Part shown: positions 4,906 through 45,827 of the stretch, in pieces
Layout of the letters: every line of letters starts with the position of its first letter
Position numbering within the stretch: the first letter of the stretch is position 1
The notes under the pieces: generated by a model
The model's input: the letters and a program-made list of their open reading frames with translations, nothing else
The model's database searches: none
Told to the model about the DNA's origin: nothing
Made by a program: the position numbers and the translations under genes
Source of the DNA: a bacterium
Lineage (GTDB): Bacteria > Chloroflexota > Dormibacteria > Aeolococcales > Bog-877
Direction of reading: 5' to 3'
Length of the DNA: 51,620 nt
Assembly: GCA_021785655.1 (NCBI GenBank)
Contig: JAJYET010000014.1
Span: forward strand, 1 to 51,620

Positions 4906-5915
4906 GCGCGCCCCTGGGGCTGATGCTCCACACCGGAGACATGCCCTACCCGGAGATCGAGCGGTACGCCCAGGAGGCGGAGCGGTCCGGGTACGAGCAG
5001 CTCCTGCTCACCGAGGAGTCGGGGAAGGAGGCCTTCTCGTTGCTGGCGGTTCTGGCCGGGCGCACCAGCCGGATCCGGCTGGGAACCGGGATCGTGAGCT
5101 TCTACACCCGGACCCCGACCCTCCTGGCCATGGCCGCCCGCTCGCTCGCCGAGCTCTCCGGCGGTCGCTTCGGGCCGCTGGGGCTGGGGACCGGGGGGAT
5201 CGGCTTCATGCGGCGCGGCCACGGGGTGGAGTTGGAGCTCCCGGTGGCGCGAGCCCGTGAGTCCGTGGAGATCGTGCGGAGCCTCCTCAACGAGCCCCGA
5301 ACCAACTATCCGGGGCGGTGGTTCAAGGTGGACGACTTCCACCTGCGCGAAGGGCCTCTCCCCCAGGGACAGGGGGTGGACATCTGGCTGGCGGCGCTCG
5401 GCCCCCAGATGGCGACCATGGCCGGGAAGGTGGCCGACGGGCTGATCACCAACTGGCTGATTCCCGAGTCGCTGGCCGAGTTCCGCCAGCTGGTGGCCGC
5501 TGGGGCGGCCAAGGCCGGTCGCGACCCGGGCAAGGTCGCCCTGGCCAGCCTGACCATGGTCTGCGCCGACCCCGGGGACGAGGAGGCCGTCATGGCAGCG
5601 CGGCGAGGGGTGGCCTTCTACTGCGCGAGTCCGCACTACCACCACATCGCCGACCTGGCTGGCCTGAGGGGAGACGCCGAGCTCGTCTTCGAGGCCTGGG
5701 AGGCGAGGGAGTTCGACCGCGCCGCCCATCTGGTGAGCGACCGGCTTCTAGAGCGGTTCACCCTCACGGGGTCCGACCAGGACTCCAGCCGCCGCCTGCG
5801 CTGGATGATGGCCGAGGGCGTCATGCCGGTCATCTATCCCCTGCCCCGGCGCTCCCGGATGGTGGAGGACCATTTCTCGATCCTGCAGCGAGCCAGGAAC
5901 TGGGCGGAGGAGTGA
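4902..5915 (+). CDS. Luciferase-like (LLM class) flavin-dependent oxidoreductase
   Basis: 337-aa TIM-barrel protein of the bacterial luciferase superfamily, which uses reduced FMN or F420 to oxidise or reduce small organic substrates. Visible signatures are the N-terminal GLMLHTGDMPYPE strand, TGIVSFYTRTPTLLAMAA, the GLGTGG loop, and LAALGPQMATMAGKVADG near residues 160-180. It starts with GTG overlapping the hydrolase stop by 4 bp and ends in a GTGA overlap with the ligase gene, so it is in the middle of the coupled operon. F420 versus FMN use cannot be decided by eye. I infer a monooxygenase or reductase step on the same substrate as its neighbours. Confidence 0.87.
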   Translation: MSAPLGLMLHTGDMPYPEIERYAQEAERSGYEQLLLTEESGKEAFSLLAVLAGRTSRIRLGTGIVSFYTRTPTLLAMAARSLAELSGGRFGPLGLGTGGIGFMRRGHGVELELPVARARESVEIVRSLLNEPRTNYPGRWFKVDDFHLREGPLPQGQGVDIWLAALGPQMATMAGKVADGLITNWLIPESLAEFRQLVAAGAAKAGRDPGKVALASLTMVCADPGDEEAVMAARRGVAFYCASPHYHHIADLAGLRGDAELVFEAWEAREFDRAAHLVSDRLLERFTLTGSDQDSSRRLRWMMAEGVMPVIYPLPRRSRMVEDHFSILQRARNWAEE

Positions 5916-7579
5916 CATTGGACGGAGTGGTCCCCTTCCCCGCCCCGGAGGCTGCCCACTACCGCCGCCTCGGATACTGGGAGGATCGGCCCCTCTGGGA
6001 TGCGTTCCAGGAGTGCTTCACCTCCTTCGCGGCCAGCCCGGCAGTCCTATCCCAGGGCGAGGTGTGGACCTTCGCTGAGCTGGCGGCGGGCACCGAACGG
6101 CTGGCGCTCAACCTCTTGGACCTGGGGCTGGGGCCACGGGCCCGGGTGGTGATGCAACTGCCCAACTGCGTGGAGTTCGTCCTGCTGTACTTCGCCCTGC
6201 AGCGGTTGGGGGCGATCCCTCTGCTCGCGCTACCCGGGCACCGGGAGTACGAGATCGGGCACTACGTGGAATTCATCGAGGCGGTTGCCTACGCCGCTCC
6301 CCCCCGGCTGGGAGAACTGGATTGCCTCGCCCTGGGAGCCAAGCTGCGCACCGAGAGCCCGGGCCTCCGGCTGGTGCTGCTCCAAGGGGCATCCCCTGGT
6401 GGGGACGAGGTGGTGGGGATCCGGGAGCTGCTGGAACGCGAGCCGCGTTCCGCCCCGGGAGCGCTTCGCCACCTGGAGATCGACCCCACTGATCCCTGCG
6501 TCTTCCAGCTCTCGGGAGGCACCACCGGGATCCCCAAGGTGATCCCCCGGACCCACAACGACTACCTCTACAACAGCCGGCTGATCGCCGGGGTTAACGA
6601 CATCCGGCCCTCCGACCGCCTCCTGGTGGCGGCTCCCATCGGGCACAACTTTCCCCTCGCTTCGCCGGGCATCCAGGGCTTCTTCCTCAACGGGGCCGCG
6701 GCCGTGCTGGCTCCCAGCCCCCGCACCGAGGTGGCGCTTCCCCTCATCGAGCGTCACGGCGTGACCCACCTGGAGGTGGTCCCCGCCATGATCCTGGCCT
6801 GGTTGGCCGACGGAGGTCCCTCCCGACACCGGCTGGACTCGGTCCGGGTGGTGAACAGCGGGGGCCAGAAGTTCCAGCCCGAGACCAAACTCCGTACCGA
6901 GGCCGCCTTCCCGAACGCCAAGGTCCAGGAGGTCTTCGGGATGGCCGAGGGACTCCTGATGATCACCCGCCTCGACGACCCCGAGCAGGTGAGGTGGGAG
7001 ACTGCCGGGAGGCCGATCTGCCCCGACGATGAGGTTTGTCTGGTGGACGAGGATGGCCGGGAGGTCCCGGACGGCCAGATCGGCGAGCTGATCTGCCGTG
7101 GCCCCTACACCCTGCGCGGCTACTACCGGGCGCCAGAGGCCAACCGCCGCTCCTTCACCCCGGAGGGGTTCTACTGCTCCGGGGACCTGCTCCGCCGCCA
7201 CCCCTCGGGCAACTACGTGGTGGAAGGGCGGAAGAAGGACCTCATCAACCGCGGGGGAGAGAAGATCAGCGCCGAGGAGGTGGAGGACATGCTCCTCTCC
7301 CATCCCGAGGTGGCCAACGTGGCCTGTGTTCCCATGCCCGATCCGATCCTGGGGGAGCGGATGTGCGCTTTCGTGCAGCCGCTCGGTCCCAAGGCACCAT
7401 CCCTGGAGCAGCTCACCTCCCTGCTGCGAGACCGGGGCCTGGCCCGTTTCAAGCACCCGGAACGGATGGAGGTGGTGGCGGAGCTGCCACTCTCCCCGTT
7501 CGGCAAGGTTCAGAAGAGCGTTCTGGCGCGGCGCGCCGCCGAGCTCGCCGGACAGCCAACGGAGGCAATCAAAGGATGA
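5912..7579 (+). CDS. Aryl-AMP ligase, 2,3-dihydroxybenzoate/salicylate-AMP ligase type (first copy)
   Basis: 555-aa ANL-family adenylate-forming enzyme; it would activate an aryl carboxylate with ATP. The P-loop region QLSGGTTGIPKVIPRTHNDY is of the EntE/DhbE type, followed by GMAEG, the hinge-region GRKKDLINRGGEKISAEEVE and the catalytic C-terminal Lys in PFGKVQKS. The GTG at 5912 overlaps the previous stop (GTGA) and gives a start MTLDGVVPFP that matches the paralogue at 9631, so I prefer it over the long upstream frame. No aryl carrier protein or condensation gene is nearby, so transfer to CoA or a catabolic role fits better than siderophore synthesis. It resembles the salicylyl-AMP ligase type known from actinomycete salicylate degradation, but that is inference. 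Confidence 0.88.
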   Translation: MTLDGVVPFPAPEAAHYRRLGYWEDRPLWDAFQECFTSFAASPAVLSQGEVWTFAELAAGTERLALNLLDLGLGPRARVVMQLPNCVEFVLLYFALQRLGAIPLLALPGHREYEIGHYVEFIEAVAYAAPPRLGELDCLALGAKLRTESPGLRLVLLQGASPGGDEVVGIRELLEREPRSAPGALRHLEIDPTDPCVFQLSGGTTGIPKVIPRTHNDYLYNSRLIAGVNDIRPSDRLLVAAPIGHNFPLASPGIQGFFLNGAAAVLAPSPRTEVALPLIERHGVTHLEVVPAMILAWLADGGPSRHRLDSVRVVNSGGQKFQPETKLRTEAAFPNAKVQEVFGMAEGLLMITRLDDPEQVRWETAGRPICPDDEVCLVDEDGREVPDGQIGELICRGPYTLRGYYRAPEANRRSFTPEGFYCSGDLLRRHPSGNYVVEGRKKDLINRGGEKISAEEVEDMLLSHPEVANVACVPMPDPILGERMCAFVQPLGPKAPSLEQLTSLLRDRGLARFKHPERMEVVAELPLSPFGKVQKSVLARRAAELAGQPTEAIKG

Positions 7580-8583: not shown

Positions 8584-8670
8584 GGGCCCAGACCGCCCGG
8601 CACGGGCAGCCATATCATGGTGGGGCCGCAGCGGGAGCAGGGGAGGCCCCGCCGGACCTCGGAGAGGAGC

Positions 8671-9546
8671 ATGGGGTCGATGGCCAGCGATAGCGCGAGG
8701 GTGGCTGAGGAGCTGGTCCGCCTCGGCTTCTCCAGCTACGAGGCCCGCACCTACCTGGGACTGCTGCTGGCGGGGGAGAGCACCGGCTACAAGATCTCCA
8801 ACCAGACCGGGGTACCGCAGCCCAAGGTCTACGAGACACTGCGGCGGCTGGTCGAGGAGGGGGCTGCCATCCAGGTCAACGCTCGCCCAGCCCGCTACGC
8901 CGCGGTGCCTCCGCCCGAGCTCCTCAGCCGGCTGGAGCGGGACTTCCGCCGCCGGCTGGAGCAGGCACGGTCAGGGCTCGATGAACTGCCGACCTCGGGA
9001 GACGGAGTGGGAAGCCTCCTGGTCAGCCGTCTCTCCAGCATCGCCACCGCCCTGGAGCGCACGCGGGAGGCGATCGAGGGAGCGAGGGTTAGGGTTTACC
9101 TCCATGCCGGGCGCGAGGAACTCCGCCCCCTGGCACCGGCCGTGAGCCAGGCCGCGGGCCGAGGGGTGGAGTTCGTGCTGGTGCACTTCGGGTCGCTGCC
9201 CTTCCCCACCCCGCCGGGCCGGGCGGTGCGCCATGCCAGCACCGAGGGGGCTGTCTACTCGTCACGGGCGGTAAGGCACCTGGCGGCGGTGGTGGATTCC
9301 CGATGGGGCCTCTGGGTGCTGGCGCGCAAGGGCCAGCCGGACCAGGGCTTCTTCGCCGAAAGCCCGCTGCTGGCCAGCCTGGTGAAGACCTACATCCGCC
9401 ACGACCTCTTCGTCCAGCGCATCTACGCCGACTTCCCCAGCGAGCTGGAGGAGCAGTACGGTCCAGGGCTGCTCAGCCTGACCGAGTTCTCCGGGGAGGA
9501 CCCCTCCGAGGAGGCCCTTGAGGAGGCGGCCGACCAGGTGGGCTGA
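8671..9546 (+). CDS. TrmB-family transcriptional regulator
   Basis: 291-aa regulator. The N-terminal winged helix-turn-helix (about residues 12-80) includes LGFSSYEARTYLGLL and SNQTGVPQPKVYETL, which are characteristic of TrmB; a short coiled segment (RLERDFRRRLEQ) precedes a C-terminal phospholipase-D-like effector domain. I prefer the ATG at 8671, which has GGAGAGGAG just upstream, over an in-frame ATG at 8617. TrmB proteins sense sugars or other small ligands. Its place between the two ligase genes suggests it controls this catabolic operon. Short inverted repeats just downstream, ahead of the second ligase, could be its operator. Confidence 0.85.
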   Translation: MGSMASDSARVAEELVRLGFSSYEARTYLGLLLAGESTGYKISNQTGVPQPKVYETLRRLVEEGAAIQVNARPARYAAVPPPELLSRLERDFRRRLEQARSGLDELPTSGDGVGSLLVSRLSSIATALERTREAIEGARVRVYLHAGREELRPLAPAVSQAAGRGVEFVLVHFGSLPFPTPPGRAVRHASTEGAVYSSRAVRHLAAVVDSRWGLWVLARKGQPDQGFFAESPLLASLVKTYIRHDLFVQRIYADFPSELEEQYGPGLLSLTEFSGEDPSEEALEEAADQVG

Positions 9547-9555
9547 GTGGGAAAG

Positions 9556-9607
9556 CTACCCACCGAGGTAGGTATCCTGGGGGACGCGCCCTGGTGGACC
9601 GGGCGCG
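9556..9607 (+). promoter_or_regulatory. Inverted repeats before the second aryl-AMP ligase
   Basis: Two inverted repeats lie in the gap after the TrmB-like gene: CTACC/GGTAG (9556-9560 and 9567-9571) and CGCGCCC/GGGCGCG (9585-9591 and 9601-9607, 9-nt loop). They may be a regulator-binding site or a weak attenuator; no T-tract follows. Function is inferred from position only. Confidence 0.35.
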
Positions 9608-9630
9608 GAGTCAGAGGAGTGTCAAAGCCC

Positions 9631-11208
9631 ATGCCGCTCGACGGAGTAGTCCCGTTCCCCGAGGAGTTCCAGCAGCGCTACCGCGAACGGGGGTATTGGG
9701 AGGACCGGTCCATGGACCAGGTCTTCCGCGAGGCCTTCCAGCGCCATGGCGACCGCATCGCCCTGGTCTTCGGCGACGAGGGCATCACCTACCGGGAGCT
9801 GGCGGAGCGCTCGGAGCGGCTGGCGGGCTACCTGTGGGCGGAGGGACTGCGGCCGCTGGACCGGGTGGTGGTGCACCTGCCCAACACGCCGGCCTTCGTC
9901 TACCTGCACTTCGCCCTCCAGCGGATCGGGGTCCTGCCGATCATGGCCCTGGCCGCCCACCGGCGTTACGAGATCGACCACTACGTGCGGCTGGCGGGAG
10001 CCAGCGCCTACTTCGGGACTGACCCGAGCCTGGCCCTGGAGATCCGGGAGCTGCATCCGGGGTTGCGGCTGTTGTTGACCGGCGGCGAGCTGCTCCACCC
10101 CCCGGCCGCCCCATCCGCCCCCGCGGTGGACGTGGACCCCACGGATCCCTGCGTGCTGCTTCTCTCCGGGGGCACCACGGGGATCCCCAAGCTGATCCCC
10201 CGCACTCACAACGATTACGTCTACAACACCAAGGCCGCCTGCACCGCCCAGGAGATCTCGGCGGAGACCGTGCAGCTCTGCGTGCTCCCCCTGGCCCACA
10301 ACTACCCCCTCGCCTGCCCCGGCATCCAGGGGGTCTTCCTCCACGGCGGGAGGGTGGTTCTGGCCTCCGGTACCCGCCCCGGACAGGTGCTGCCGCTCAT
10401 CGAACGGCACCGGGTGACCCACGTGGGCGGAGTGCCGGCTCTCTACATCCGCTGGCTCGCCGATCCCCTGGCCCAGAGCTGTGACCTCTCCTCGGTGACC
10501 CTCTTGCAGTCGGGAGGCCAGCGGCTGCAGCCCGAGGTGCGTCGGCAGCTGGCCCGCGCATTCCCCAACTCCTTCGTCCAGGAGAACTTCGGCATGAGCG
10601 AAGGGACCTTGTTCTTCACCCGGAAGAGCGATCCCGACGAGGTCAGGATGGAGACCGTCGGGGTGCCGGTGTGCCCCGATGACGAGGTCCGGCTCACCGA
10701 CGAGGAGGGGCGGGAGGTCGCCCCGGGAGAGGTCGGTGAGCTAACAGTGAGAGGGCCGTACACCCTGAGGGGCTACTACCGGGCTGAGGACTACAACCAG
10801 CGGGTGTTCACCCCGGACGGCTTCTATCGCTCGGGCGACCTCATGCGCCAGCACCCCTCCGGCGCCTACCTGGTGGAGGGCCGGATCAAGGATCTCATCA
10901 ACCGCGGGGGCGAGAAGATCAGCGCCGAGGAGGTGGAGAACCTCATCCTGACCCACCCCGCGGTCCGCAACGTGGCCTGCATCCCTCTCCCCGACCCCGT
11001 GCTCGGGGAGAGGATGTGCGCCTGCGTCATCCTCAAGGAGGGAGCCGAGCTCGATCTCGCCGGCCTCTCGACCCACCTCATGGACCTCGGGCTCGCCAAG
11101 TTCAAGCTTCCCGAGCGGCTGGAGATGGTCGACCAGTTCCCCCTCTCCACCTTCGGCAAGGTCTCGAAGAAGCAGCTGGCGGATCAGTTCGCCCCCAAGG
11201 GGGCCTGA
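9631..11208 (+). CDS. Aryl-AMP ligase, DHB/salicylate-AMP ligase type (second copy)
   Basis: 525-aa ANL-family ligase, clearly paralogous to the protein at 5912: both begin with MxLDGVVPFP and a GYWEDR motif. It has LLSGGTTGIPKLIPRTHNDY, GMSEG, the hinge-region GRIKDLINRGGEKISAEEVE and catalytic Lys in TFGKVSKK. The chosen ATG (9631) follows an AGAGGAG at moderate spacing; an in-frame GTG at 9619 is an alternative. It is about 30 residues shorter than its paralogue, mainly in the middle. Two such ligases in one operon suggest two related aryl acids, or an activation step repeated after ring modification. It ends 2 bp from the convergent amidohydrolase gene. Confidence 0.87.
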   Translation: MPLDGVVPFPEEFQQRYRERGYWEDRSMDQVFREAFQRHGDRIALVFGDEGITYRELAERSERLAGYLWAEGLRPLDRVVVHLPNTPAFVYLHFALQRIGVLPIMALAAHRRYEIDHYVRLAGASAYFGTDPSLALEIRELHPGLRLLLTGGELLHPPAAPSAPAVDVDPTDPCVLLLSGGTTGIPKLIPRTHNDYVYNTKAACTAQEISAETVQLCVLPLAHNYPLACPGIQGVFLHGGRVVLASGTRPGQVLPLIERHRVTHVGGVPALYIRWLADPLAQSCDLSSVTLLQSGGQRLQPEVRRQLARAFPNSFVQENFGMSEGTLFFTRKSDPDEVRMETVGVPVCPDDEVRLTDEEGREVAPGEVGELTVRGPYTLRGYYRAEDYNQRVFTPDGFYRSGDLMRQHPSGAYLVEGRIKDLINRGGEKISAEEVENLILTHPAVRNVACIPLPDPVLGERMCACVILKEGAELDLAGLSTHLMDLGLAKFKLPERLEMVDQFPLSTFGKVSKKQLADQFAPKGA

Positions 11209-11210
11209 GC

Positions 11211-12059
11211 TCAGCCCACCTTGGGGGTCTGGTCCGCCTCCTCCCCGAACAGCAGGCGCCGGGAGTTGGTGTAGAGGATCTTGCGCTTGACCTCCTCCGG
11301 AAGGTCGATCTCCTCGAAGTCGCGGAGCCAGCGCTGGGCCGTCATGACCGGGGCATCGGTGCCGAACAGGACCCGATCGGGGAAGATCCCCTTGGCGTAC
11401 TTCCAGACGGTATCCGGGATGTACTTGGGCGACCACCCGGAGAGCTCCAGGTAGCAGTTGCGCCGGATCCAGGTCACCGAGATCGCCTGGTTGACCCAGG
11501 GGAACCCGAAGTGGGCCAGGATCAGTCGGAGGTTGGGGAAGTCCAGGGCCACCTCGTCCAGGTGGGTGGGGTCGCCGTACTGCATCCTGCCACCAGACTG
11601 GTTGTGGCCAGTGTGGACCAGGACCGGGATGCCGAGCTCCTCGGCCTTGGCCCAGAGGGGATAGTGGGCGCGGTCGTTGGGATAGAAGTGCTGGGTCGGG
11701 GGATGGAGCTTGAGGCCACGCATTCCCAGGTCCCGCACCGCGTGCTCCAGCTCCTCGACCGCCAGCTGATGCTTGTTGGGGTCGACGCTGGCGAATCCCA
11801 CGAAGCGGTCGGGGCGCTGGGCCACCAGGGCGGCGACCATCTCGTTGGGGACCTTCCATCCGTGGGTGGTCTCGCAGTCGAAGGCCAGAAGCGCGGCCAG
11901 CTCGACCCCGGCCTCGTCCATGGAACGGACCATGTCGTCCACGGTGATGGGCTGGCCGTCAAAGTTGAAGGTCTTGCGGGCATGGCCCCAGAACCACTCC
12001 GGGGTCACTGCCAGCACCTCCTCGGTATACGGGTGCACGTGGATGTCAATGGATTTCAA
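11211..12059 (-). CDS. Amidohydrolase family 2 protein
   Basis: 282-aa amidohydrolase-2 barrel with the full metal-site set: DIHVHP at the N-terminus, GLKLHPP, VHTGHNQ, LILAHFG and GTDAPVM. Unlike the family member at 7576 it keeps the HxH motif, so it may act as a true hydrolase or as a decarboxylase. It starts with TTG at 12059 preceded by GGGGAG; no better start is visible. It is the last gene of the minus-strand operon that begins with the molybdenum hydroxylase, 44 bp after the SDR. The substrate is unknown; its neighbours suggest aromatic or heterocyclic compound breakdown. Confidence 0.83.
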   Translation of the reverse strand: MKSIDIHVHPYTEEVLAVTPEWFWGHARKTFNFDGQPITVDDMVRSMDEAGVELAALLAFDCETTHGWKVPNEMVAALVAQRPDRFVGFASVDPNKHQLAVEELEHAVRDLGMRGLKLHPPTQHFYPNDRAHYPLWAKAEELGIPVLVHTGHNQSGGRMQYGDPTHLDEVALDFPNLRLILAHFGFPWVNQAISVTWIRRNCYLELSGWSPKYIPDTVWKYAKGIFPDRVLFGTDAPVMTAQRWLRDFEEIDLPEEVKRKILYTNSRRLLFGEEADQTPKVG

Positions 12060-12103
12060 GGCCTGCTCCCCAACTTCCCCTTCGGTTCACTGCAACTTGG
12101 CCG

Positions 12104-12868
12104 TCAGGTGGAGGCACTGTAGCCGCCGTCCACCACCACCACCTCCCCGGTGACGAACCGGGTTCCCTCGATCAGCGCCACAACCACCTCGGCCACATCA
12201 TCTGCCGTCGCCACCCTGCGCAGAGGGGTGTGGGCAGCGCGCCGTTCCATCAGCCGGTCGTAGTTCTGCCCCAAGGTCTGCTCCATCCACTCGCCCAGTA
12301 CCCATCCCGGGGCGACGGCGTTGACCCGGACCTCTGGCGCCAGGGCGCGAGCAAGCGTCCGGGTGAGGTTGGCCACCGCGGCCTTGCTGGCGGCGTACGG
12401 GAGGGGCTGGGCGCTGGGGCGCAGTCCGGCGATGCTGGACATGTTCACCACCGCCGCCCGCTCTGATCGCCGCAGCATCGGCAGGACCGCCCTCGTCACC
12501 TGGAAGAGGCCGCGGACGTTGACCGCGAAGACCCGGTCCCACTCCTCGAGCGCCATCCCCTCCAGATCCTCCGGTGGCGCCTCTATGGTGATCCCGGCGT
12601 TGTTGACCAGGGCATCGAGCCCCCCGAACTCCCGCTCCACGGCCGCAGCCAGCTCGCGTACCTCCATCTCCTGGCTGACGTCGGCGCGCACCAGGAGCGC
12701 GGAGGCCCCCTGCTCTCGGACCAGCTCGGCGGCCTCCTGGGCTGGCCCCTCGGCCCGGCTGTAATTGATGGCCACGTCATACCCGAGGCGGGCCAGGGCC
12801 ACCGCGCTGGCCCGCCCCATCCCCCGGGAGCCGCCGGTCACGAGCGCCGTCCTCCGCCCCCCGCTCAC
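12104..12868 (-). CDS. Short-chain dehydrogenase/reductase (FabG-like)
   Basis: 254-aa classical SDR. The NAD(P)-binding GGSRGMGRA lies at the N-terminus, NNAG near residue 90, then the catalytic Ser in NMSSIAG and YAASK, and the C-terminal family motif ends in VVVDGGYS. It would oxidise a hydroxyl group or reduce a keto group in the cytoplasm. It starts with GTG at 12868, overlapping the stop of the OsmC-like selenoprotein candidate (GTGA), so it is translationally coupled to it. A role in fatty-acid synthesis is unlikely here, as no other fab gene is near; it more likely serves the same oxidative pathway as the Mo-hydroxylase. Confidence 0.9.
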   Translation of the reverse strand: MSGGRRTALVTGGSRGMGRASAVALARLGYDVAINYSRAEGPAQEAAELVREQGASALLVRADVSQEMEVRELAAAVEREFGGLDALVNNAGITIEAPPEDLEGMALEEWDRVFAVNVRGLFQVTRAVLPMLRRSERAAVVNMSSIAGLRPSAQPLPYAASKAAVANLTRTLARALAPEVRVNAVAPGWVLGEWMEQTLGQNYDRLMERRAAHTPLRRVATADDVAEVVVALIEGTRFVTGEVVVVDGGYSAST

Positions 12869-13416
12869 TGAGGCCCCTCCCCAGCGTCGAGCTCCAGCGG
12901 GGCGCCGTTGAGGCTGACCTCAAGCGTGGTCGGGACCTCCACCTTGAAGGTCTGGCTGGCGTGGCAGGCGCGCTCTGCGTGGCGGCAGAGCTCGGCCACC
13001 TGGGACGGGGGTGCGGGACTATCCACCCGGAGCTGGAAGGAGACCTGCTGAAAGGCCCCCGGCGGTCCTCCGAGATCGTACTTGTCGGCCAGGCTGAATT
13101 CGGCGCGGACGTCCGCCGCCGCCGCCCGGATCTCCACTCCGTACAAGGGCGAAAACTTCGCCACCTGGGTGAGCATTCAGAACGCCGCCCCAGCCAGCAG
13201 ATACTGCAGAGGCCGGGGCGCAGAGCCCGTCCCGCCCCCGTCCGAGGGCTCGTCCGACTCCAGCGTGAACGTGCCCACCCGCCCCACCATGTGCAGGTCC
13301 CGATCGATGTGTGCCACCGCTCGCTGGGTGATCACGGGACGCAGCTCAGCCTCCTCCCGTGTCCGGCGGTAGGCGGCGAGCATGCGCTCCGGGTCGACGA
13401 TGGGGAGATCACTCAT
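12865..13416 (-). CDS. OsmC-family protein with in-frame TGA at the catalytic Cys: candidate selenoprotein
   Basis: Read through one TGA (13177-13179), the frame is continuous for 183 residues, a normal OsmC/Ohr-like length. Upstream is GGGTGSAPRPLQYLLAGAAF and downstream MLTQVAKF...LYGVEI, the usual pattern around the first redox Cys of the family; TGA takes exactly that position (residue 80). The second redox Cys is kept at residue 151 (RACHASQTF). OsmC proteins reduce organic peroxides with such a thiol pair. The ATG at 13416 has GGAGGTG upstream and overlaps the Mo-hydroxylase stop (ATGA); the end overlaps the SDR start (GTGA). A stem-loop with SECIS features follows the TGA. Selenocysteine is an inference; a nonsense mutation or sequencing error is the alternative, but there is no other decay. 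Confidence 0.78.
13144..13167 (-). promoter_or_regulatory. Candidate bacterial SECIS element downstream of the in-frame TGA
   Basis: On the minus strand the RNA folds as CAGG, bulged U, GGCGAA, loop GUU, UUCGCC, CUUG: six clean pairs above the bulge and four below (one G-U). The apical loop starts with G and lies 20 nt after the UGA. A G at the start of a small loop, a bulged U in the stem and this spacing match what is known of SelB-binding SECIS hairpins (E. coli fdhF type). It lies within the coding sequence, as bacterial SECIS elements do. Confidence 0.68.
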
Positions 13417-15719
13417 CGGGATGCACCTCCGAGGTGGCGCCAGAGCTTCTCCGGCGTGAATGGGGGGTCCATGAGCCCCGCCCCGAGGGGGGTGAGGGCG
13501 TCGGCGAGAGCGTTGGCCACGGCTGCCGGGATGGCGATGCAACCGCTCTCGGCCACCCCCTTGGTCCCCAGGGGGCTCAGGGGCGAAGGGGTCGGCCGGA
13601 ACTCGGTAACTATCTCCGTACCGATGTCTGGGAGGGTGGGCACGGCGTAGCTCAGGAAACTCTCCGTGAGCGCCTGGCCGTCGGGGTCGTGGAGCACCTC
13701 CTCGAAGAGCGCTGCCGCGAGCCCCTGGACGCTGGAGCCGATCACCTGCCCCTCGGCCAGGAGGGGGTTGACGACGGTCCCGGCATCGTCGACGGCCACT
13801 AGCCGGTCCACCTCCACCCAGCCGGTCTCGGGGTCCAGCTCCACGGTGGCGACGCAGGCGGAAGAGCCGAAGGCCAGGCCGGGCAGCGTGAAGCGACCGC
13901 CGCCTCGGAGTTCGGGAAGGTCTTCCAAGGTCTGGTTTCGCGCCGCCGCCGCCAGCTCCTGGAGTCCCACCCCGTCTCCCCCAGTGGATGGCACCACCCT
14001 ACCGGCCCTCCACTCCAGCCCCTCTTCCGGGATGTCCAGGAGGTGGGCTGCCCAGGTGACGCAGCGGCGCCGGAGCTCCTCCAGAGCGAGGAGGACCGCC
14101 GAGCCACCGACCGTCACCGAGCGACTGCCGAAGGTGCCGACCCCGAGGGGAACCTCGCGGGAGTCCCCGGAGCGCACCTCGATGCGGCCAGGATCCACAC
14201 CCATGGCGTCCGCGGCGATCTGGGCGAACGTCGTGGCGTGGCCCTGACCGTGATCGCTGGAGCCGGGCAGGAGGACAATTCGACCGTCTTCCCCCAGGAC
14301 CGCCGCCGCGGTCTCCCAGCCGCTGTTCCCGCTCGACTCGACAGTCAGCGCCAGCCCCACTCCCCGCAGACGCCCTTCGGAGCGGGCACGATCTCGCCGC
14401 TGGAGCTCAGCGCCCCACGAGGAGAGTTCCAGCGCCCGGTCCAACAGGCCCGGGTAGTCCCCGGAGTCGTATTCCGTGCCGAGGACGGTGCGGTAGGGGA
14501 AGTCGGAGGCCGCCACCAGGTTGCGGCGCCGGATCTCCACCGGGTCCAGGTTCAGGCGGGCCGCGGCCAGGTCCATCATCCGCTCGATGAAGTAGGCGGC
14601 CTCCGGACGCCCCGCCCCCCGATATGGCCCCGTCGGGACCTTGTTGGTGGCCACCCCGACGACGGATACCTCCGCCGCCGGGATCCGATAGGCGCCGGTC
14701 GCGAGGCTGGTGGCGGTGAGTGACACGACTGAGGTGTGCCCCAGGTGGTAGGCCCCGGCGTCGGCAAGGAGCTGCAGGCGCAGCCCACGGATGACTCCGT
14801 CCCGGCCCAGGCAGAGCTCGGCGTCCGCGTCCATCCCCCGGCCCTGGTAGGCGGCGAGGAAGTTCTCCGAGCGGGTTTCCACCCACTTCACGGGGCGCCG
14901 GGAGCGCATCGCCAGGAAGGCCGCCACCACGTGTTCCGGTGCCAGCCCACCCTTGCTCCCGAAGGCCCCTCCGACGTCCGGGACCACCACCTGGACCCGC
15001 TCCTGCTCCCACCCGAGGAGCTGGGCCAGCTGCACCCGAGGGCGGTGGGGGTCCTGCGATGAGCACCAGAGCGTGAGCCGCGCCCCATCCTCAGAGGCGA
15101 CCGCCAGGCAGCCGCGGGGCTCCATCGGCGCCGCCTGGAGCCGGGGGATCGAAAAGCTTGCCGAGACCACCGCGTCCGAGGCGGCGAATGCGTCATCCAC
15201 CGCTCCCCCCGAGCGCCTCCAGCGGAAGAGGACGTTGTCTGGGACCCCGGAGTGGACGGCGGGCCCGCCAGAGAGCGCCGCCCGGAGGCCGCCCACCGCC
15301 GGTAGCGGCTCCAGGTCCAACTCCACGAGGTCGCTGGCATCCTCGGCCACCGCGCGGGAGTCAGCCAGCACCGCGGCCACGGGCTCGCCCTGGAACCGCG
15401 CCTCCTCCCAGGCGAGCACCGGCATGGGCACGGGTGCCACGACGAAGTCCGGCGGCATGGCGATCGTGCTGAGGGGCAGGTGACGCAGGGATTGCGGAAG
15501 GTCGGCGGCGGTGATGACGGCCAGCACTCCGGGAACGGCCAGAGCTCGAGCCGGGTCCACCGCCCGGATCCGGGCGTGCGGCAGCGGGGAGCGGATGAAG
15601 GCCACAAAGGCACTCCCGGGCGCGGCGAGATCGTCGAGGTAGGCGCCCCGCCCCTGGACCAGCCGCTGGTCCTCACGGCGTCGCTCCGGACGGCCGACCC
15701 AAGTTCCCGTCAACTCCAT
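13413..15719 (-). CDS. Molybdenum hydroxylase large subunit (xanthine dehydrogenase/CoxL family)
   Basis: 768-aa molybdopterin-binding subunit of the xanthine oxidase family, which hydroxylates aromatic heterocycles or aldehydes using water. It shows RGAYLDDL at the N-terminus, the Mo-cofactor contact Gln in SSQDPHRPR, VGGAFGSKGG, the active-site loop PYRGAGRPEA and the catalytic Glu in KGVAESG. The AYRCSFR loop of form I CO dehydrogenase is absent, so it is not a true CoxL. The length is full. The FAD and 2Fe-2S subunits normally encoded next to it are missing from the window, so partners must come from elsewhere. It starts the minus-strand operon and is coupled to the OsmC-like gene by an ATGA overlap. 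Confidence 0.88.
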   Translation of the reverse strand: MELTGTWVGRPERRREDQRLVQGRGAYLDDLAAPGSAFVAFIRSPLPHARIRAVDPARALAVPGVLAVITAADLPQSLRHLPLSTIAMPPDFVVAPVPMPVLAWEEARFQGEPVAAVLADSRAVAEDASDLVELDLEPLPAVGGLRAALSGGPAVHSGVPDNVLFRWRRSGGAVDDAFAASDAVVSASFSIPRLQAAPMEPRGCLAVASEDGARLTLWCSSQDPHRPRVQLAQLLGWEQERVQVVVPDVGGAFGSKGGLAPEHVVAAFLAMRSRRPVKWVETRSENFLAAYQGRGMDADAELCLGRDGVIRGLRLQLLADAGAYHLGHTSVVSLTATSLATGAYRIPAAEVSVVGVATNKVPTGPYRGAGRPEAAYFIERMMDLAAARLNLDPVEIRRRNLVAASDFPYRTVLGTEYDSGDYPGLLDRALELSSWGAELQRRDRARSEGRLRGVGLALTVESSGNSGWETAAAVLGEDGRIVLLPGSSDHGQGHATTFAQIAADAMGVDPGRIEVRSGDSREVPLGVGTFGSRSVTVGGSAVLLALEELRRRCVTWAAHLLDIPEEGLEWRAGRVVPSTGGDGVGLQELAAAARNQTLEDLPELRGGGRFTLPGLAFGSSACVATVELDPETGWVEVDRLVAVDDAGTVVNPLLAEGQVIGSSVQGLAAALFEEVLHDPDGQALTESFLSYAVPTLPDIGTEIVTEFRPTPSPLSPLGTKGVAESGCIAIPAAVANALADALTPLGAGLMDPPFTPEKLWRHLGGASR

Positions 15720-24889: not shown

Positions 24890-24981
24890 AGACGCTCTTG
24901 CTGATCTGGAACAGCTTGATTGGAGCGGGAGACGGGTCTCGAACCCGCGACCTTCTGCTTGGGAAGCAGACGCTCTACCAA
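24890..24981. repeat. Left direct repeat (attL) with the 3' part of tRNA-Gly
   Basis: 92 bp equal to 36940-37031 except one base (24908 G versus 36958 C). It contains the last 61 nt of the tRNA-Gly gene on the minus strand, including the encoded CCA and the anticodon arm, but lacks the 5' part, so no tRNA can be made here. The uninterrupted identity is 73 bp (24909-24981). Target-site duplications of this kind mark integration by a tyrosine integrase at a tRNA 3' end. Confidence 0.9.
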
Positions 24982-24991
24982 TGAGGCCGAC

Positions 24992-45685: not shown

Positions 45686-45738
45686 GGCCCCATCCTGTTT
45701 CTCACACCTCCCGAACGTCTCGGGGTGGACAGGGCGTG

Positions 45739-45827
45739 GCTTCCCGACGCTGGTGCTAACCAGATCCGGTGTTCAGGGTTGGCGGGTTGCCTCTCAGCGC
45801 CCTGTCGGCGCACCCCTAGCTGAAAGC
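45739..45827 (-). promoter_or_regulatory. TPP riboswitch (THI element)
   Basis: On the minus strand the conserved blocks appear in order: P1 GCTTTC (45822-45827), AGGGGTGCGC, CTGAGAGG, ACCCTGAACACCGGATCTGG, TTAGCACCAGCG and TCGGGAAGC, which closes P1. These are the universal sequence elements of the thiamine diphosphate riboswitch. A hairpin with CACC/GGTG and CCGA/TCGG arms lies between it and the start codon and is probably the expression platform. Confidence 0.93.

What the first reader, a model, noticed from the sequence alone, without database searches (positions are those of the whole stretch)
13144..13167. SECIS-like hairpin with bulged U and G-first loop right after the TGA
The minus-strand RNA has a six-pair upper stem, three-base loop GUU, bulged U and four-pair lower stem, with the loop 20 nt after UGA. 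Known SelB-binding hairpins need a small G-first loop, often a bulged U, and a UGA-to-loop distance of about 16-37 nt. This is independent support for recoding, since the underlying codons are not constrained to fold this way.
Basis: partly seen in the sequence, partly recalled or inferred. Interest (0 to 1): 0.75.

Follow-up and report, generated by a model that had tools for sequence, protein, structure and literature searches.

The report
Selenocysteine insertion hairpin in OsmC-like gene
The hairpin just after an in-frame stop codon is a genuine bacterial signal for inserting selenocysteine, conserved by paired mutations in some 30 related genes; it makes this gene a member of an already described selenoprotein family, in a poorly studied bacterial lineage.

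Summary
On its own it is weak evidence, since 37% of all TGAs in this 70% GC window pass generic SECIS rules. Comparison settles it. In 33 TGA-bearing homologues the 6-bp upper stem is 90% paired and every pair shows compensatory double changes (0/500 shuffles). In 24 Cys homologues the hairpin is absent. The lower 4-bp stem is not conserved. The genome has selA-selB-selD, tRNA-Sec and a second selenoprotein gene, a formate dehydrogenase alpha subunit with a G-loop hairpin. The protein exceeds the cut-off of the curated family NF041052 "OsmC-related (seleno)protein", and OsmC-like UxxT selenoproteins were published in 2005. So UGA recoding through a bacterial SECIS is very likely, but the kind of system is known. 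Additions here are the strong covariation, a natural control (a Cys member, branching among the Sec proteins, without the hairpin), a Dormibacterota-type host, a conserved operon with a molybdenum hydroxylase, and loss of Ohr's catalytic Glu, which questions a simple peroxidase role.

The parts
12865..13416 (-). OsmC-like selenoprotein gene (183 aa with Sec80; ATG 13416-13414 overlaps the TGA stop of the upstream gene; stop TGA 12867-12865 overlaps the GTG of the next gene)
   Evidence: Read-through translation; Pfam OsmC 47.2 bits, cut-off 27.5; NCBIfam NF041052 OsmC_like_Se 137.5 bits, cut-off 95; predicted fold pLDDT 93.8 matching OsmC/Ohr structures
13177..13179 (-). in-frame UGA = Sec80 at the peroxidatic-Cys position, motif U-M-L-T (UxxT)
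   Evidence: TGA at the same column in 33 distinct homologues, TGC/TGT in 24 Cys homologues
13148..13162 (-). SECIS core: 6-bp upper stem GGCGAA/UUCGCC with apical loop GUU (loop 13156-13154)
   Evidence: 90.3% of cells paired across 31 distinct rows, 6 of 6 pairs with double compensatory changes
13163..13163 (-). bulged U, nucleotide 17 counted from the U of UGA, the same number as U17 of E. coli fdhF
   Evidence: column 17 is T in at least 90% of Sec homologues, but the codon (Leu/Val) could explain that too
13144..13167 (-). whole hairpin including the 4-bp lower stem CAGG/CUUG; lower stem specific to the close relatives
   Evidence: lower stem paired in only 61.3% of cells
12964..12966 (-). 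codon of the invariant putative resolving Cys151 (HAERACHA)
   Evidence: Cys151 invariant in the 25 aligned Sec and Cys proteins
13413..15719 (-). upstream operon neighbour: molybdenum hydroxylase large subunit (xanthine dehydrogenase/CO dehydrogenase family)
   Evidence: Pfam MoCoBD_1/2 and Ald_Xan_dh_C; adjacent to OsmC in L026-L029, L126, L127
12104..12868 (-). downstream operon neighbour: SDR oxidoreductase
11211..12059 (-). downstream operon neighbour: amidohydrolase (Amidohydro_2)

Best explanation
The hairpin is a bacterial SECIS element inside the coding region of an OsmC-like selenoprotein gene. The ribosome meets UGA at codon 80; SelB-GTP carrying Sec-tRNA(Sec) binds the small G-first loop about 20 nt downstream and delivers selenocysteine instead of terminating. 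The product is a 183-aa OsmC-fold protein with Sec80 in place of the peroxidatic Cys and an invariant partner Cys151. Shown computationally: hairpin, covariation, Sec/Cys swap, Sec machinery, family membership. Inferred: SelB binding, actual Sec insertion, and a redox role through a Se-S bond between Sec80 and Cys151. The substrate is unknown, and a classic Ohr peroxidase is doubtful because Ohr's catalytic Glu position holds Leu70.
For: TGA at the same codon in 33 distinct homologues from several families of one phylum. Upper stem covaries at all six pairs, 90.3% paired, 30 double-changed cells against a shuffled mean of 7.4, 0/500 shuffles, and sliding the partner by 1-3 columns destroys it. 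About 16 pair-type changes on the protein tree keep pairing. The loop keeps a G at its first or second position. The closest Cys homologue, L071, branches among the Sec proteins and has no hairpin (MFE -0.6). Cys set: no conserved hairpin. Synonymous-codon z: Sec mean -1.64, Cys +0.10, Mann-Whitney p = 4.7e-7. Genome has selA-selB-selD (C40:78992-83147), SelB with winged-helix domains 2 and 3 and tRNA-Sec with anticodon TCA. Second selenoprotein in the same genome: formate dehydrogenase with UGA in NQARI-U and hairpin CCCC-GGUCU-GGGG. All 27 sampled TGA-OsmC genomes have selA. NF041052 passes its cut-off.
Against: Generic SECIS rules are met by 37% of all TGAs in this GC-rich window, so the fold alone proves little. 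Two of 33 Sec homologues miss the strict rules of my script, one just by energy (L048, -7.3 kcal/mol). selA occurs in 323 of 400 phylum genomes, so co-occurrence adds little. No protein or mass-spectrometry evidence. Two relatives (G008, G066) have lost the Sec segment.
Confidence: 0.96

Rival explanations
1. The TGA is a true stop followed by re-initiation at the adjacent ATG (TGA-ATG), giving two separate polypeptides; the hairpin is incidental.
For: In the window and its closest kin the codon after TGA is ATG, and an ORF of 103 aa starts there.
Against: In most homologues the codon after TGA is CTG, CTC or CTT (Leu), ACG or GAG, not ATG. The OsmC domain spans both sides of the TGA, and the Sec column holds Cys in relatives. 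The stem covaries only when TGA is present.
Confidence: 0.02
2. The hairpin is a by-product of GC-rich codon usage and conserved protein sequence (A-K/R-F-S/A-P); no RNA function.
For: Generic hairpins of this type are common in this genome (37% of TGAs). The synonymous null gives equal stability in 2.5% of draws.
Against: Compensatory changes at all six pairs include amino-acid changes that go together (Lys-Ser with A-U/A-U, Arg-Ala with C-G/G-C) and variants with quite different codons that still pair (L067, L075, L080, L091). Cys homologues lack it.
Confidence: 0.015
3. Pseudogene or sequencing error: the TGA is a disabling mutation.
For: Two relatives carry copies that lost this segment.
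Against: The same TGA is found in 33 distinct homologues from independent genomes, with high protein conservation on both sides.
Confidence: 0.005

Closest known systems
OsmC-like selenoprotein family (Zhang et al. 2005, PMC1088965; GOS survey PMC2398784; review table PMC13188914, UxxT) / NCBIfam NF041052 OsmC_like_Se
   Same: OsmC fold, Sec at the peroxidatic-Cys position, UxxT motif (here U-M-L-T), bacterial SECIS just downstream, Cys homologues known; score over the curated cut-off.
   Different: Published examples are marine metagenome sequences (3 in 2005, 5 in 2008). Here the host is a Dormibacterota-type genome, and the gene sits in an operon with a molybdenum hydroxylase, an SDR and an amidohydrolase. 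The original sequences could not be compared directly.
E. coli fdhF SECIS
   Same: U at nucleotide 17 from UGA, followed by a short stem and a small loop holding G-U.
   Different: Upper stem longer before the loop, loop GUU (or A-GUU-U if the top pair opens) instead of GGUC, G at nt 24 instead of 23; lower stem not conserved.
Ohr/OsmC peroxidases (e.g. XfOhr, PMC5962072)
   Same: Fold, peroxidatic and resolving chalcogen residues (Sec80, Cys151).
   Different: Catalytic Glu, 10 residues before the peroxidatic Cys in Ohr (Glu51/Cys61), is Leu70 here and nearly invariant Leu in the family; identity to solved Ohr/OsmC chains about 20%.

Membership tests
Bacterial SECIS element (model in PMC13188914) | apical loop of 3-9 nt on a 4-16 bp upper stem | tested here: met
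   3-nt loop, 6 bp
Bacterial SECIS element (model in PMC13188914) | G in the first two loop positions, usually followed by G or U | tested here: met
   loop GUU; read as A-GUU-U it fits the N1-G-[G/U]-N-N2 pattern
Bacterial SECIS element (model in PMC13188914) | 16-37 nt between UGA and loop | tested here: met
   20 nt; 18-20 nt in all homologues that pass
Bacterial SECIS element (model in PMC13188914) | MFE at most -7.5 kcal/mol | tested here: met
   -11.8 to -16.2 kcal/mol
Bacterial SECIS element (model in PMC13188914) | structure conserved by covariation in UGA genes and not in Cys genes | tested here: met
Bacterial SECIS element (model in PMC13188914) | binds SelB and directs Sec insertion | not testable with these tools
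   SelB with winged-helix domains 2 and 3 is encoded; binding not tested
OsmC_like_Se (NF041052) | profile score over the curated cut-off of 95 bits | tested here: met
   137.5 bits with the TGA read through; 129.1 bits in the whole-genome search
OsmC_like_Se (NF041052) | Sec (UxxT) or Cys at the peroxidatic position, and a resolving Cys | tested here: met
   Sec80, Thr83, Cys151
Ohr peroxidase | catalytic Glu 10 residues before the peroxidatic Cys | tested here: not met
   Leu70, nearly invariant; Ohr triad from PMC5962072
Sec-using organism | selA, selB, selC, selD present | tested here: met

The most novel reading that the evidence does not exclude
The Sec-OsmC proteins are not peroxidases but a separate selenol-based redox or chalcogen-transfer activity that works with the molybdenum hydroxylase encoded directly upstream, and the gene family swaps between Sec, Cys and segment loss as that pathway changes.
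Probability: 0.1. Interest if true: 0.55.

Novelty: new member of a known kind. Interest (0 to 1): 0.35.

Why it matters
The gene is mis-read by plain ORF finding (a 103-aa fragment starting at the ATG after the TGA). With 33 natural variants, its SECIS gives a clear covariation set for defining what SelB recognises in a lineage far from E. coli: the upper stem and G-first loop are kept, the lower stem is free. The Cys member without a hairpin is a natural control. It adds an uncultured Dormibacterota-type lineage with two predicted selenoprotein genes.

Tried and rejected
Rfam, gathering threshold over the window and E-value mode over 13100-13200: no SECIS family matches; the hits at 13100-13200 are chance. 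Viral contigs: no relative. Plasmids: only distant OsmC proteins, at most 32% identical. The first synonymous-codon null used codon frequencies pooled from the hairpin region and is conservative; it was repeated for the window gene with window-wide usage. The generic SECIS rule as evidence was rejected because 37% of all TGAs pass. The TGA-ATG re-initiation idea was rejected because ATG is not conserved after TGA. The recent selenoprotein-neighbourhood paper (PMC12013261) is not held, so whether it already treats this family or its operon is unknown to me.

Full report
Observation. The minus strand from the TGA at 13179-13177 reads UGAAUGCUCACCCAGGUGGCGAAGUUUUCGCCCUUGUACGG. It folds as described: CAGG(U)GGCGAA-GUU-UUCGCCCUUG, -11.8 kcal/mol for 31 nt, z -3.0. 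The loop begins 20 nt after UGA. Coordinates 13144-13167 are exact.

How unusual is it alone? Not very. Scanning all 1019 TGAs on both strands of this 70% GC window, 37% have a hairpin meeting generic bacterial SECIS rules and 7% one as strong. Redrawing synonymous codons gives equal stability in 2.5% of draws and the same 6-bp stem in 0.3%.

The gene. Reading TGA through gives a 183-aa protein with a Pfam OsmC domain spanning both sides of the TGA. It matches NCBIfam NF041052, OsmC-related (seleno)protein, with 137.5 bits against a cut-off of 95. AlphaFold2 gives pLDDT 93.8 and Foldseek matches OsmC/Ohr structures with probability 1.00. Sec80 sits at the peroxidatic-Cys position and Cys151 is invariant. 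Thirty-six of 47 putative ORFs picked in the window end in TGA, including the genes on either side, so TGA is an ordinary stop here.

Homologues. Close relatives in the genus and family, the class and the phylum give 33 distinct TGA-bearing sequences, and 24 with Cys plus one with Ser at that column. The 42 nt from TGA align without gaps. The upper stem (columns 18-23 with 27-32) is paired in 90.3% of cells against 70.7% in shuffles. All six pairs show double changes and the covariation score is 0.482 against 0.161; 0 of 500 shuffles reach the pairing, the double-changed cells or the score, and slides of 1-3 columns destroy it. RNAalifold independently predicts exactly this stem. Variants include GGCGCG/CGCGCC, GACGCG/CGCGUC, UGUGCG/CGCACA, UGUGCA/UGCACA and GGCCG/CGGCC. 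The lower 4-bp stem is paired in only 61% of cells and is not a conserved feature. In the Cys sequences the same columns are paired in 32.6% of cells, equal to shuffles, and no consensus structure is found. A protein tree built without the hairpin columns needs three Sec/Cys changes; the Cys protein L071 branches among Sec proteins and lacks the hairpin. Branch supports there are moderate, so the direction of that change is inferred.

Machinery. The genome carries adjacent selA, selB and selD at C40:78992-83147 and a tRNA-Sec with anticodon TCA at C40:43815. SelB has winged-helix domains 2 and 3. A second selenoprotein gene, a formate dehydrogenase alpha subunit, has TGA in NQARI-U-HSATVPGL followed by the hairpin CCCC-GGUCU-GGGG 18 nt after UGA. 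All 27 sampled genomes with a TGA-OsmC have selA; since 323 of 400 genomes have it, this is consistent rather than decisive.

Mechanism. SelB with Sec-tRNA binds the G-first loop while the ribosome waits at UGA and inserts Sec80. The bulged U lies at nucleotide 17 from UGA, as in E. coli fdhF (sequence; the role of that U in SelB binding is from general knowledge). SelB binding and Sec insertion are inferred. For the protein, a Se-S exchange between Sec80 and Cys151 is inferred from the OsmC fold. Ohr enzymes also need a Glu ten residues before the peroxidatic Cys (PMC5962072), and here that residue is a nearly invariant Leu, so a classic hydroperoxidase is not established. The operon with a molybdenum hydroxylase, SDR, amidohydrolase and a nearby acyl-adenylating ligase is kept in the nearest relatives and partly beyond.

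Novelty. OsmC-like UxxT selenoproteins with bacterial SECIS elements were reported from the Sargasso Sea in 2005 (PMC1088965), again in the GOS survey (PMC2398784), are listed in a 2026 review (PMC13188914), and have a curated family. This is a new member of a known kind. What the work adds is strong covariation evidence, the Sec/Cys control, and the host and operon context. The host label Dormibacterota-type rests on the record title of a same-genus relative (L029 = G016).

Noticed in passing
L138 = around G000:C21:31837-32589 (TGA at C21:32257): Second selenoprotein gene in the same genome: formate dehydrogenase alpha subunit with UGA in NQARI-U and a SECIS-like hairpin with loop GGUCU, close to that of E. 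coli fdhF.
   Followed up: yes
L062/L066 (G008:C121) and L065 (G066:C12): Two relatives carry OsmC copies from which the segment holding the Sec codon and SECIS is deleted; G066's also looks frameshifted. Possible pseudogenes or assembly faults.
   Followed up: partly
L112 (G121:C24:226881-227270): A homologue with Ser (AGC) at the Sec position still has a strong G-first hairpin, one nucleotide off the usual register; a relic SECIS or chance (synonymous p about 0.01 in 25 tests).
   Followed up: partly
window 9547-15719: Conserved gene cluster: molybdenum hydroxylase, Sec-OsmC, SDR, amidohydrolase and a convergent 2,3-dihydroxybenzoate-AMP-ligase-like enzyme; pathway unknown.
   Followed up: partly
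window 5318-7579 and 9547-11208: Two 2,3-dihydroxybenzoate-AMP-ligase-like proteins, both well below that family's cut-off, flank a TrmB-like regulator gene (8617-9546).
   Followed up: no
window 45725-45827 (-): TPP riboswitch above the gathering score.
   Followed up: no
window 24932-24987 (-): Partial tRNA-like match (33 bits, model positions 9-63).
   Followed up: no
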